Assembly (NCBI RefSeq): GCF_900106785.1
Contig: NZ_LT629843.1
Span: 13,753 to 75,645, forward strand
Direction: 5' to 3'
DNA length: 61,893 nt
Source: Prevotellamassilia timonensis
Lineage (GTDB): Bacteria; Bacteroidota; Bacteroidia; Bacteroidales; Bacteroidaceae
Part shown: piece after piece, positions 28,975 through 32,542 of the stretch
Layout of the letters: each line of letters starts with the position of its first letter
Position numbering within the stretch: position 1 is the first letter of the stretch
Position numbers and translations under genes: made by a program
The notes under the pieces: generated by a model
The model's database searches: none
Told to the model about the DNA's origin: nothing
Seen by the model: the letters and a program-made list of their open reading frames with translations, nothing else

Positions 28975-30846
28975 ATGAATATTATAAATTTAGGAATTCT
29001 TGCTCACATTGATGCAGGAAAAACTTCCGTAACCGAGAATCTGCTGTTTGCCAGTGGAGCAACGGAAAAGTGCGGCCGTGTGGATAATGGTGACACCATA
29101 ACGGACTCTATGGATATAGAGAAACGTAGAGGAATTACTGTCCGGGCTTCTACGACATCTATTATCTGGAATGGAGTGAAATGCAATATCATTGACACTC
29201 CGGGACACATGGATTTTATTGCGGAAGTGGAGCGGACATTCAAAATGCTTGATGGAGCAGTCCTCATCTTATCCGCAAAGGAAGGCATACAAGCGCAGAC
29301 AAAGTTGCTGTTCAGTACTTTACAAAAGCTGCAAATCCCGACAATTATATTTATCAATAAGATTGACCGTGCCGGTGTGAATTTGGAGCGTTTGTATATG
29401 GATATAAAAACAAATCTGTCGCAAGATGTCCTGTTTATGCAAACTGTTGTCGATGGATCGGTTTATCCGGTTTGCTCCCAAACATATATAAAGGAAGAAT
29501 ACAAAGAATTTGTATGCAACCATGACGACGATATATTAGAACGATATTTGGCGGATAGCGAAATTTCACCGGCTGATTATTGGAATACGATAATCGCTCT
29601 TGTGGCAAAAGCCAAAGTCTATCCGGTGCTACATGGATCAGCAATGTTCAATATCGGTATCAATGAGTTGTTGGACGCCATTTCTTCTTTTATACTTCCT
29701 CCGGCATCAGTCTCAAACAGACTTTCAGCTTATCTCTATAAGATAGAGCATGACCCCAAAGGGCATAAAAGAAGTTTTCTTAAAATAATTGACGGAAGTC
29801 TGAGACTTCGAGACGTTGTAAGAATCAACGATTCGGAAAAATTCATCAAGATTAAAAATCTAAAGACTATTTATCAGGGCAGAGAGATAAATGTTGATGA
29901 AGTGGGTGCCAATGATATCGCGATTGTAGAAGATATAGAAGATTTTCGAATCGGAGATTATTTAGGTGCTAAACCTTGTTTGATTCAAGGATTATCTCAT
30001 CAGCATCCCGCTCTCAAATCCTCCGTCCGGCCAAATAAGCCCGAAGAGAGAAGCAAGGTGATATCCGCTCTGAATACATTGTGGATTGAAGACCCGTCTT
30101 TGTCCTTTTCCATAAACTCATATAGTGATGAATTGGAAATCTCGTTATATGGTTTGACCCAAAAGGAAATCATACAGACATTGCTGGAAGAACGATTTTC
30201 CGTAAAGGTCCATTTTGATGAGATCAAGACTATCTACAAAGAACGACCTATAAAAAAGGTCAATAAGATTATTCAGATCGAAGTACCACCCAACCCTTAC
30301 TGGGCCACAATAGGGCTGACTCTTGAACCCTTACCGTTAGGGGCAGGGTTGCAAATCGAAAGTGACATCTCCTATGGTTATCTGAACCATTCTTTTCAAA
30401 ATGCCGTTTTTGAAGGGATTCGTATGTCTTGCCAATCTGGTTTACATGGATGGGAAGTGACTGATCTGAAAGTAACTTTTACTCAAGCCGAGTATTATAG
30501 CCCGGTAAGTACACCTGCTGATTTCAGACAGCTGACCCCTTATGTCTTCAGGCTGGCCTTGCAACAGTCAGGTGTGGACATTCTCGAACCGATGCTCTAT
30601 TTTGAGTTGCAGATACCCCAAGCGGCAAGTTCCAAAGCTATTACAGATTTGCAAAAAATGATGTCTGAGATTGAAGACATCAGTTGCAATAATGAGTGGT
30701 GTCATATTAAAGGGAAAGTTCCATTAAATACAAGTAAAGACTACGCCTCAGAAGTAAGTTCATACACTAAGGGCTTAGGCGTTTTTATGGTCAAGCCATG
30801 CGGGTATCAAATAACTAGGGTGTCCAGTTTTACGTTCCTAAATTAG
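28975..30846 (+). CDS. tetQ: Tet(Q) ribosomal protection protein, C-terminus replaced by IS sequence
   Basis: Elongation-factor-G-like GTPase that removes tetracycline from the ribosome. G motifs are present: AHIDAGKTS (P-loop, from residue 10), DTPGHMDF and NKIDRAG. Residues 1-614 agree with the well-known 641-aa Tet(Q). The reading frame then enters an IS at 30816 and adds nine foreign residues (RVSSFTFLN). The missing 27 codons are found after the IS at 32458-32542. The lost part is the C-terminal end of domain V, so activity may be reduced or lost. An alternative GTG start at 28927 gives the 16-residue longer form sometimes annotated. Confidence 0.93.
   Translation: MNIINLGILAHIDAGKTSVTENLLFASGATEKCGRVDNGDTITDSMDIEKRRGITVRASTTSIIWNGVKCNIIDTPGHMDFIAEVERTFKMLDGAVLILSAKEGIQAQTKLLFSTLQKLQIPTIIFINKIDRAGVNLERLYMDIKTNLSQDVLFMQTVVDGSVYPVCSQTYIKEEYKEFVCNHDDDILERYLADSEISPADYWNTIIALVAKAKVYPVLHGSAMFNIGINELLDAISSFILPPASVSNRLSAYLYKIEHDPKGHKRSFLKIIDGSLRLRDVVRINDSEKFIKIKNLKTIYQGREINVDEVGANDIAIVEDIEDFRIGDYLGAKPCLIQGLSHQHPALKSSVRPNKPEERSKVISALNTLWIEDPSLSFSINSYSDELEISLYGLTQKEIIQTLLEERFSVKVHFDEIKTIYKERPIKKVNKIIQIEVPPNPYWATIGLTLEPLPLGAGLQIESDISYGYLNHSFQNAVFEGIRMSCQSGLHGWEVTDLKVTFTQAEYYSPVSTPADFRQLTPYVFRLALQQSGVDILEPMLYFELQIPQAASSKAITDLQKMMSEIEDISCNNEWCHIKGKVPLNTSKDYASEVSSYTKGLGVFMVKPCGYQITRVSSFTFLN
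30807..30815. repeat. 9-bp target duplication, left
   Basis: TCAAATAAC directly before the IS; the same nine bases follow it at 32449-32457. Confidence 0.9.
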
Positions 30847-32039
30847 CTCACTTTTCTGAGCTGTTTGGTACGTTCTGTAACCCAGTTTATGGACATATGC
30901 TCTTTTGCAAAAGCATCAATGTCCTTTAGTTTAACATTACATAAGCGCTCTTTGAAATTAAATGATTTAGTAGCAGATTTGTTCTCGAGTTTTGCGTGTA
31001 ACGGTATAAACAGGACAAAAGGAGTAATGCCATACAATTTGTTTGGCGACTTCTTTTGCTTGAATACACCAAAGGTTGATTCAATGATATCAGAAGAGAT
31101 GTTGCGTGATTCATAAGAAGCATTCAACTTCGCTTCATGCTCCTTGAGGTACTCTAAAATCTCGATTCCAAGCATAGCTCTGCGGTTGTTTGCATTACCG
31201 ATGACGTGCTGCATGATATATTTCTTGCACTTGTTACAGGTCGCAAGATTGAATCCCTCTGTTTTACAGACGGCTTCTATATACTCTACAGCACATACAG
31301 CGACTTTCAATTCAACCAATAGCTCCTTGTAATCAAGAATGAAGGCATACGCCTCCTGCATTTTCTCTGGGAGTTTATCGAAACTTTCAAGCATTTTGTT
31401 GCCCCAATCAACCCATGAATGGAAATTCATGAATCTGGCGATACTACGCATATTGGGAGGTAAAAGATATGCTTTATCTGTAAGTTGATATTGCAATCTG
31501 ATTTTCCCAAGAAGTGCAGTAAAGTTCATAAAATCAGGTTGTTTGCCATAAGCATGCTTAAAGCATGTGCCCATGGCATGACTGATATCGATATGGTGCA
31601 GCAAACCTGATTGCTTAATTCCATTTGTAAGATTATGAGCTTGGTCGCTGATGATATATTCAGGCTTAGCCCCAATTCCTTCAATGGATTTTTCAATCTC
31701 TTGCTTGATGTCATCCCCTTTAAAGCCACCACTGGATTTCATGCCGATAACAGTAACGTCTTCATGCTTAATGGGACGTCCGAGATGATTGGCAGGAATA
31801 CCTAGAATCAGAAGAAGTTTCTCTCGATTAACCATAATGCTTTCGTCAATGATACATGCAAACTTCTTATCAGTAGGTTTGCTGTCATTCTCATAAGTAG
31901 ATAGGCCTAACTTCTTCATCCAGTTCTCTACGGTATTATAAGATGGTATCTTTCCACATTTGCCTTCAAGTGCTTCATTGAAAATCTCAAGAATCTTCAC
32001 TACAGTGCGAAGGCCGCAGTTGGTACGAATGTAAATCAA
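30843..32039 (-). CDS. IS transposase, main (catalytic) frame
   Basis: 398 aa counted from a TTG. In reality the frame is open much further upstream, to the A9 run at 32138-32146. Read through a -1 shift it gives EIVIDPIPGHRFS before this start, a plausible transposase core. Candidate catalytic acids are D in CIIDES, D in YIISDQAHNL and E in DIIESTFG, a DDE triad. The protein would cut and join the 25-bp ends. The stop at 30843-30845 lies just inside the left repeat. Confidence 0.8.
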   Translation of the reverse strand: MIYIRTNCGLRTVVKILEIFNEALEGKCGKIPSYNTVENWMKKLGLSTYENDSKPTDKKFACIIDESIMVNREKLLLILGIPANHLGRPIKHEDVTVIGMKSSGGFKGDDIKQEIEKSIEGIGAKPEYIISDQAHNLTNGIKQSGLLHHIDISHAMGTCFKHAYGKQPDFMNFTALLGKIRLQYQLTDKAYLLPPNMRSIARFMNFHSWVDWGNKMLESFDKLPEKMQEAYAFILDYKELLVELKVAVCAVEYIEAVCKTEGFNLATCNKCKKYIMQHVIGNANNRRAMLGIEILEYLKEHEAKLNASYESRNISSDIIESTFGVFKQKKSPNKLYGITPFVLFIPLHAKLENKSATKSFNFKERLCNVKLKDIDAFAKEHMSINWVTERTKQLRKVS

Positions 32040-32056
32040 TACGCAAAGTTGAACAA

Positions 32057-32281
32057 TCAGAAGAGAGAATCTATGTCCGGGAATAGGGTCGATAACAATT
32101 TCTTTTGTTCTTCGGTCACAGTCACGGTCTTTACGTCTTTTTTTTTAAGTTCCTTCCTTACCTCTTCAAGTTTAGCCTTGTCGGCCTCTTTTTGAGATTT
32201 AAGTTTGGCATTCTCTTTACGAAGACGTTTAACTTCCTCTTCTAAGGTTTCTTTATTGGGTTTTGAATCAAACTTTTTCAT
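32057..32281 (-). CDS. IS transposase, upstream coiled-coil frame
   Basis: 74-aa Lys/Glu-rich coiled-coil protein (TLEEEVKRLRKENAKLKSQK...). It crosses nine consecutive A (minus strand, 32146-32138), a classical A-AAA-AAA slippery site. A -1 slip there joins it to the catalytic frame, giving one protein of roughly 470 aa. The unshifted product ends at DIDSLF. The coiled coil probably mediates multimerisation. Confidence 0.7.
   Translation of the reverse strand: MKKFDSKPNKETLEEEVKRLRKENAKLKSQKEADKAKLEEVRKELKKKDVKTVTVTEEQKKLLSTLFPDIDSLF
32138..32146 (-). promoter_or_regulatory. programmed -1 frameshift site (A9)
   Basis: Nine A on the coding (minus) strand in the register AAA AAA AAA G. From here the -1 frame stays open to the transposase stop, and no stop intervenes. 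Confidence 0.65.
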
Positions 32282-32448
32282 TGTTTTTAGTTGCTTAATT
32301 ATGCTACTAAGTTACTAAAAACTAACGACTTATACAAATTTTCAAAGAACTATTTTGCTTGCTAAAGCGTTAAATATTAGAACGTTATATTAACAATGAC
32401 AAGGGCGTTTGATACTACGTTTTTAGGAACGTAGAACTGGACACCCTA

Positions 32449-32457
32449 TCAAATAAC
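32449..32457. repeat. 9-bp target duplication, right
   Basis: TCAAATAAC, matching 30807-30815 on the other side of the IS. Confidence 0.9.
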
Positions 32458-32542
32458 AAAAGGCGATTATTCTGATAATATCCGCATGAACGAAAAAGAT
32501 AAACTTTTATTCATGTTCCAAAAATCAATGTCATCAAAATAA
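32458..32542 (+). pseudogene. tetQ: severed 3' end of tetQ
   Basis: Read in the original frame this gives ITKGDYSDNIRMNEKDKLLF and then MFQKSMSSK with a TAA, the normal C-terminus of Tet(Q). The TAA (32540-32542) shares its last base with the ATG of rteA. The coupling between tetQ and rteA is therefore broken by the IS. Confidence 0.9.

What the first reader, a model, noticed from the sequence alone, without database searches (positions are those of the whole stretch)
30807..32542. tetQ is split by an insertion sequence with a clean 9-bp target duplication
The IS (30816-32448, 25-bp TIRs) removes the last 27 codons of tetQ from the protein and separates the rteA start from its normal coupling to tetQ. 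Resistance, tetracycline-inducible excision and transfer may be altered. A strain could be tetQ-positive by PCR yet show changed resistance.
Basis: seen in the sequence. Interest (0 to 1): 0.75.

Follow-up and report, generated by a model that had tools for sequence, protein, structure and literature searches.

The report
Unnamed jumping gene interrupts tetracycline-resistance gene
A small jumping gene has landed near the end of a tetracycline-resistance gene, and that jumping gene belongs to a widespread bacterial family that the protein-family libraries searched here do not recognise.

Summary
A 1,633-bp insertion sequence (30816-32448) sits in tetQ with a 9-bp target duplication. This tetQ is the only one in the genome. 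A second identical IS copy elsewhere has its own 9-bp duplication, and four intact relatives carry the unoccupied 9-mer. Tet(Q) loses its last 27 residues and gains 9 IS-encoded ones; the lost part corresponds to TetM's C-terminal extension. Reduced resistance and reduced inducible transfer are likely but untested.

The larger result is the IS itself. Its transposase has no above-threshold Pfam or NCBIfam match and no PDB sequence match, yet relatives occur in Bacteroidota, Cyanobacteria, Planctomycetota and other phyla. Shared features are TAGG(G/C)TGT ends, 9-bp duplications (33 of 49 testable copies), a DDE triad with a DxxH motif, a confident fold nearest to hAT and IS256 transposases, and an A-run in 35 of 35 members whose frame is split. 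I read it as an IS family missing from these libraries and expressed by A-run slippage. ISfinder could not be searched.

The parts
28810..28840 (+). Bacteroides-type promoter-like site upstream of tetQ (TTTG-19-TAATTTTG; consensus recalled)
   Evidence: 5 matches in the window against 1.56 expected; this is the only one between 4670 and 59204
28975..30846 (+). truncated tetQ frame, 623 aa from the ATG; 30816-30846 is IS sequence giving 9 foreign residues and a stop
   Evidence: searches used the frame from 28978, one codon after the ATG
30807..30815 (.). left copy of the 9-bp target duplication TCAAATAAC
30816..32448 (-). insertion sequence, transposase antisense to tetQ
30816..30842 (.). terminal inverted repeat, 27 nt
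32422..32448 (.). terminal inverted repeat, 27 nt
32057..32281 (-). ORF A of the transposase, 74 aa, coiled-coil-like
30843..32144 (-). ORF B of the transposase, open frame of 433 codons, -1 relative to ORF A; DDE domain
32138..32146 (-). run of nine A (T on +) in the overlap of ORF A and ORF B
32449..32457 (.). right copy of the 9-bp target duplication
32459..32542 (+). last 27 codons and stop of tetQ, cut off from the gene
32542..34860 (+). rteA-like hybrid sensor kinase, 772 aa, same length as in CTn214
34853..36175 (+). rteB-like sigma-54 response regulator, 440 aa
37116..37718 (+). rteC-like gene, colinear with the RteC-domain gene of CTn214

Best explanation
A DDE-type insertion sequence transposed recently into codon 614 (counted from the ATG at 28975) of the only tetQ of a CTnDOT-like conjugative element, duplicating 9 bp (shown). 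The gene now encodes a Tet(Q) without its C-terminal extension, with 9 foreign residues instead (shown); I expect weak or no ribosome protection (inferred). rteA and rteB are intact but depend on transcripts that read through 1.6 kb of IS in antisense, and on translation no longer coupled to tetQ, so tetracycline-induced rteC, excision and transfer should be reduced (inferred). The IS belongs to a broad family without an above-threshold match in Pfam or NCBIfam. Its transposase is predicted to have an RNase-H/DDE fold with a long helical insert and a DxxH motif, as in Mutator/IS256-type and hAT enzymes. It is encoded in two frames that are most likely joined by RNA-polymerase slippage on a run of about nine A (inferred); a minority of members have one frame.
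For: Two identical IS copies with different exact 9-bp duplications; empty 9-mer in 4 of 4 intact relatives; single tetQ; TetM alignment ends at residue 613-614 of 638-639, and the TetM C-terminal helix is called important for function (PMC4750697 passages); RteA/B/C made only with tetracycline in CTnDOT (PMC1976400 passages); no Bacteroides-type promoter in the IS. Family: 33 of 49 testable copies with exact 9-bp duplication against 2 of 2352 swapped flank pairs; DDE and DxxH conservation; model pLDDT 91.4; fold matches Hermes and ISCth4; A-run of 7 or more in 35 of 35 split members; 9A slippage precedent in IS genes (PMC1088944 passages).
Against: No expression, MIC or transfer data. No terminator-like site on the + strand in 30600-32700, so rteA may still be reached. 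16 of 49 testable copies lack an exact 9-bp duplication (4 of these have an exact 8 or 10), and 33 of 84 loci had no pair of TAGGNTGT ends. Fold matches have TM-scores of only 0.28-0.48 with rmsd 15-19 A. Two one-frame members also have a run of 8 or more A. A profile of the family found no transposase among PDB sequences.
Confidence: 0.72

Rival explanations
1. The truncated Tet(Q) still protects ribosomes well enough, and read-through keeps rteA/rteB inducible, so the insertion is phenotypically silent.
For: The Pfam domains through EFG_C are present, rteA and rteB are full length, and no + strand terminator-like site was found.
Against: What is missing aligns with the TetM C-terminal extension, whose helix is called important for function.
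Confidence: 0.25
2. The two transposase frames are joined by -1 ribosomal frameshifting on the A-run rather than by RNA-polymerase slippage.
For: The frame change is -1 in 22 of 35 split members, including the window; A-AAA-AAG-type sites are known ribosomal slippery sites (recalled).
Against: 7 of 35 need +1 at the same kind of run, which -1 slippage of the ribosome would not give; 9A runs in IS genes are known slippage sites.
Confidence: 0.3
3. The IS is already catalogued in ISfinder, for example in its not-classified group, and only the protein libraries lack it.
For: ISfinder could not be searched here; a relative with many copies, in Calothrix NIES-4101, would be easy to find.
Against: No match above a curated cut-off in Pfam or NCBIfam for 49 members; plasmid records listed call it hypothetical protein or carry no feature.
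Confidence: 0.4
4. The insertion is an assembly artefact at a repeated IS.
For: The IS is present twice at 100% identity, and reads were not seen.
Against: Each copy has its own exact, different 9-bp duplication; a misjoin between copies would not give that. Both copies lie well inside contigs.
Confidence: 0.03

Closest known systems
CTnDOT/CTnERL family; nearest record seen CTn214 (Bacteroides fragilis p214_V8GG_COL1, NZ_OR675140.1)
   Same: Window 12180-59096 is colinear at 90-96% identity, with tetQ-rteA-rteB-rteC, mob and tra genes in the same order.
   Different: In the window tetQ is split by the IS, the methylase gene by a group II intron, and two stretches (37719-39323, 40452-41094) have no match; CTn214's own inserted block (about L042 32260 to L128 2897) is absent.
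IS256 and other prokaryotic Mutator-like (p-MULT) elements, Guerillot et al. 2014, PMC3942029 (abstract, passages, section 13)
   Same: DDE in the same fold positions, DxxH 19 residues after the second D, helical insert, 9-bp duplication, inverted repeats within 18-39 bp.
   Different: No significant profile match to nine IS256 sequences (E 0.058); D-to-E spacing 188 residues against a helical insert of 99-138; the outermost base pair is T-A, not the conserved terminal cytosine.
hAT transposases (Hermes)
   Same: Best structural match in PDB, E 3.2e-7, and in BFVD a Pandoravirus hAT-type protein, E 5.7e-8.
   Different: TM-score 0.37-0.48 and rmsd 15-19 A for the Hermes chains at E <= 0.001; 9-bp rather than 8-bp duplications (hAT value recalled); no sequence match.
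IS genes with 9A transcriptional slippage, Baranov et al. 2005, PMC1088944 (passages)
   Same: Two overlapping frames with a conserved run of 8-10 A in the overlap.
   Different: The passages read do not give the IS family of those elements; slippage is not measured here.

Membership tests
Insertion sequence (autonomous DDE IS) | terminal inverted repeats and a target duplication | tested here: met
   27-nt repeats, 9-bp duplication at both genomic copies
Insertion sequence (autonomous DDE IS) | DDE transposase | tested here: met
   D100 47 of 49, D167 49 of 49, E355 49 of 49; RNase-H-like model
Insertion sequence (autonomous DDE IS) | observed transposition | not testable with these tools
   only multiple copies with different duplications
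IS256 / p-MULT (Mutator-like) | C/D(2)H motif 11-19 residues after the second D | tested here: met
   D186..H189 in 49 of 49, 19 residues after D167
IS256 / p-MULT (Mutator-like) | 8- or 9-bp duplication, inverted repeats of 18-39 bp | tested here: met
   9 bp; 27-nt repeats
IS256 / p-MULT (Mutator-like) | sequence or profile similarity to IS256 | tested here: not met
   no Pfam Transposase_mut match; hhalign E 0.058, first D not aligned
IS256 / p-MULT (Mutator-like) | conserved terminal cytosine | tested here: not met
   ends are TAGG...CCTA
ISH6 | match to the NCBIfam ISH6 model above its cut-off | tested here: not met
   6 of 49 members match weakly, best E 1.7e-5; cut-off 240 bits, and no match in the own genome at E <= 0.001
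hAT transposases | hAT fold with helical insertion domain | tested here: inconclusive
   Hermes is the best Foldseek match but TM-score is 0.37-0.48
hAT transposases | hAT sequence signatures | tested here: not met
   no hAT model in the Pfam scans at E <= 0.01; no hAT alignment was at hand for a profile comparison
CTnDOT-like conjugative element | tetQ-rteA-rteB-rteC order with mob and tra genes | tested here: met
   colinear with CTn214
CTnDOT-like conjugative element | tetracycline-induced excision and transfer | not testable with these tools
   needs cultures

The most novel reading that the evidence does not exclude
The IS represents an undescribed, cross-phylum IS family whose transposase links the Mutator/IS256 and hAT types, with TAGG ends and 9-bp duplications, and whose activity is set by RNA-polymerase slippage on a conserved A-run. 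Here it has turned a self-inducing resistance transposon into one whose resistance and self-transfer are both damped at one stroke.
Probability: 0.4. Interest if true: 0.68.

Novelty: new variant of a known kind. Interest (0 to 1): 0.5.

Why it matters
A resistance-gene call from PCR or annotation would be positive here although the protein lacks its end: the broken frame still passes the NCBIfam Tet(Q) cut-off (1465 against 1425 bits). More broadly, a transposase family found in Bacteroidota, Cyanobacteria, Planctomycetota, a Spirochaetes and a Chlorobiota MAG and a Parabeggiatoa MAG is called 'hypothetical protein' or is unannotated in the plasmid records listed, so its insertions are probably overlooked. 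The A-run, present in every split member examined and absent (no run of 8 or more) in 9 of 11 one-frame members, gives a direct test of slippage as a control of transposition.

Tried and rejected
Looked for the IS in plasmids by DNA (no match), in phages by protein (no match), in viral contigs by its end sequence (none), and for this tetQ junction in viral contigs (none). A first viral scan with the single protein confirmed no relative; the alignment found 2. Rejected as labels: IS6, ISH6, IS5 and MobC (sub-threshold matches in 9, 6, 2 and 1 of 49 members; 10 members rescanned), GrpE for ORF A (24 bits against a cut-off of 184), a weak PHROG of unknown function, IS256 membership, with IS66 as control (E 0.17). 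The profile of the family against PDB sequences gave only non-transposases, best E 0.013. The summary lines miscounted because of an indexing slip; one search repeats the count, and only the table and the background figure are used. One IS256 locus (L131) was left out of alignment A4 because the script picked the wrong strand. Paper searches showed, in what their listings printed, no report of tetQ split by an IS and no description of this IS family; that covers only the held open-access library and capped lists. PMC3479509 and PMC4418892 (TetM structures) are not held.
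Full report
What is there. The window lies in contig C15 (13753-75645) of a 3.48-Mb genome in 17 contigs. The IS occupies 30816-32448, with 27-nt terminal inverted repeats (96% complementary) and TCAAATAAC on both sides. The repeat finder shows an 11-nt direct repeat, but its first two bases on the right are the last two of the IS. The second copy, 100% identical, at C16:335009-336641, starts and ends at the same bases and is flanked by ATTATTAGC on both sides, which fixes the ends. In four named intact relatives the stretch between the same two flanks is exactly the 9-mer. The insertion is therefore a real transposition, and recent as judged by identical copies and exact duplications.

Effect on tetQ. 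The frame from the ATG at 28975 (codon 17 of the 639-aa frame listed from GTG 28927) now gives 623 aa; the IS interrupts codon 614, the last 9 residues are encoded by the IS, and 27 codons with the stop lie to the right (the calls used the frame from 28978, one codon later). Against the Tet(Q) model of 638 positions, the left piece covers 1-615 and the right piece 609-638. The left piece aligns to TetM up to residue 613-614 of 638-639, so what is lost is the C-terminal extension. A paper on Tet(M) mutants calls the helix in that extension important for function (PMC4750697, passages only; the structural papers it cites are not held). I therefore expect weak or no protection, but nothing here measures it. 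No other match over the Tet(Q) cut-off exists in the genome. In the genus, 4 of 58 genomes have tetQ at E <= 1e-150; the other three cover 1-638.

Effect on the operon. tetQ has a Bacteroides-type promoter-like site upstream at 28810-28840; none lies in the IS (the consensus is recalled). The tetQ stop overlaps the rteA ATG, as in the intact record. rteA and rteB have the lengths seen in CTn214. In CTnDOT, RteA, RteB and RteC are made only under tetracycline, RteB activates rteC, and RteC controls excision and transfer genes (PMC1976400, passages). With the IS in place, rteA needs read-through of 1.6 kb of antisense IS and loses ribosomes arriving from tetQ. Both terminator-like sites found in 30600-32700 are on the - strand, so read-through is possible. 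Reduced induction is an inference.

The element. Window 12180-59096 is colinear with CTn214 at 90-96% identity, from integrase to tra genes. It is interrupted by a group II intron (about 24688-27168; Rfam matches at 24746-24885 and 27092-27168; maturase) inside the methylase gene, by the IS, and by stretches without a match, 37719-39323 and 40452-41094.

The IS family. ORF B (398 aa) gives no Pfam match even at E 10 and no PDB sequence match at E 1. In 49 members Pfam gave only four single-member matches of unrelated families at E <= 0.01, and NCBIfam only sub-threshold ones: IS6 in 9, ISH6 in 6, IS5 in 2, MobC in 1. Relatives: 13 other genomes of 393 in the order (some only weak partial matches); 145 of 217 candidate stretches in the species genomes, 80 kept, in Bacteroidota, Nostoc, Calothrix and other cyanobacteria, two Planctomycetota MAGs, and Spirochaetes, Chlorobiota and Parabeggiatoa MAGs; 2 viral contigs; 15 and 16 plasmid records by two queries. 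The same IS in full was found only in this genome among 58 of the genus; the nearest relative kept by the scan is a 3' part in Bacteroides caecigallinarum, 84% in protein.

Ends and duplications. Of 84 loci examined (80 + 2 viral + 2 own), 51 had TAGGNTGT at both ends; 49 of these had flanks on both sides, and 33 had an exact 9-bp duplication. By group: own 2 of 2, P. lacticifex 7 of 8, Calothrix NIES-4101 13 of 20, viral 2 of 2, others 9 of 17; flanks swapped between loci matched in 2 of 2352 (the two identical viral loci). Of the 16 misses, 4 have an exact 8- or 10-bp match. The end motif was part of the search, so its constancy is partly by construction; the duplications are not. Copies of one host are not independent families.

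Fold and active site. AlphaFold2 on the 49-sequence alignment gave pLDDT 91.4 and pTM 0.87. D100 lies in the first strand, D167 just after the fourth, E355 in a helix behind a helical insert; D100 is kept in 47 of 49, D167, E355 and the D and H of DxxH (186, 189) in 49 of 49. Of 16 PDB matches at E <= 0.001, 12 are Hermes chains (best E 3.2e-7) and 4 ISCth4 chains of an IS256-family element (best E 4.1e-5), with query TM-scores of 0.28-0.48 and rmsd of 15-19 A, so the likeness is in the core, not the whole. The C/D(2)H motif sits where prokaryotic Mutator-like enzymes have it, 11-19 residues after the second D (PMC3942029, section 13). Profile comparison with nine IS256 sequences put the second D and the DxxH region in register but not the first D, and was not significant (E 0.058); the IS66 control gave E 0.17. 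So it works like a DDE transposase of that broad group but is not filed in IS256 or hAT.

Expression. Of 49 non-redundant members, 3 were dropped for lack of an anchor or upstream sequence. 35 have the catalytic frame without an in-frame start more than 300 nt before a conserved Trp, and all 35 carry a run of 7 or more A there (30 have 8 or more). 11 have one long frame, and 2 of these have 8 or more (Fisher p 7.7e-5, not corrected for relatedness). In the rest of ORF B, 7 of 240 windows of 200 nt have 8 or more A. The frame change is -1 in 22, +1 in 7, ambiguous in 3 and not seen in 3. Runs of 9A are known slippage sites in IS genes (PMC1088944, passages). Both directions at the same kind of run favour slippage over -1 ribosomal frameshifting, but this is not shown.

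Verdict. The tetQ interruption is real and, as an event, ordinary. The element that did it is the interesting part: a broad IS family without a model in the protein libraries searched. Whether ISfinder holds it could not be tested.

Noticed in passing
window 24688-27168: A group II intron with maturase (25275-27050) interrupts the N-6 DNA methylase gene of the same element.
   Followed up: partly
L038 1501-1555 (G000:C17:1213489-1213543): A 55-bp relic with both IS ends facing each other (14 exact bases each); its 9-bp flanks agree in 7 of 9, as if from an older insertion.
   Followed up: partly
L016 1501-1581 (G077:C111, contig edge): Another species of the genus carries a related IS end, 79% identical over 81 bp, cut off by the contig end.
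   Followed up: no
window 37719-39323: Insert absent from CTn214, with a 491-aa frame at 37835-39310 between the rteC-like gene and an acetyltransferase-like gene; its family was not searched.
   Followed up: no
L046 1-160: In Bacteroides caecigallinarum the closest IS relative is cut off just before its A-run, next to other sequence.
   Followed up: no
L096-L115 (Calothrix sp. NIES-4101 loci): Many 9-bp duplications start with G and end with C (such as GGCTAGTCC), which hints at a palindromic target preference; not tested.
   Followed up: no
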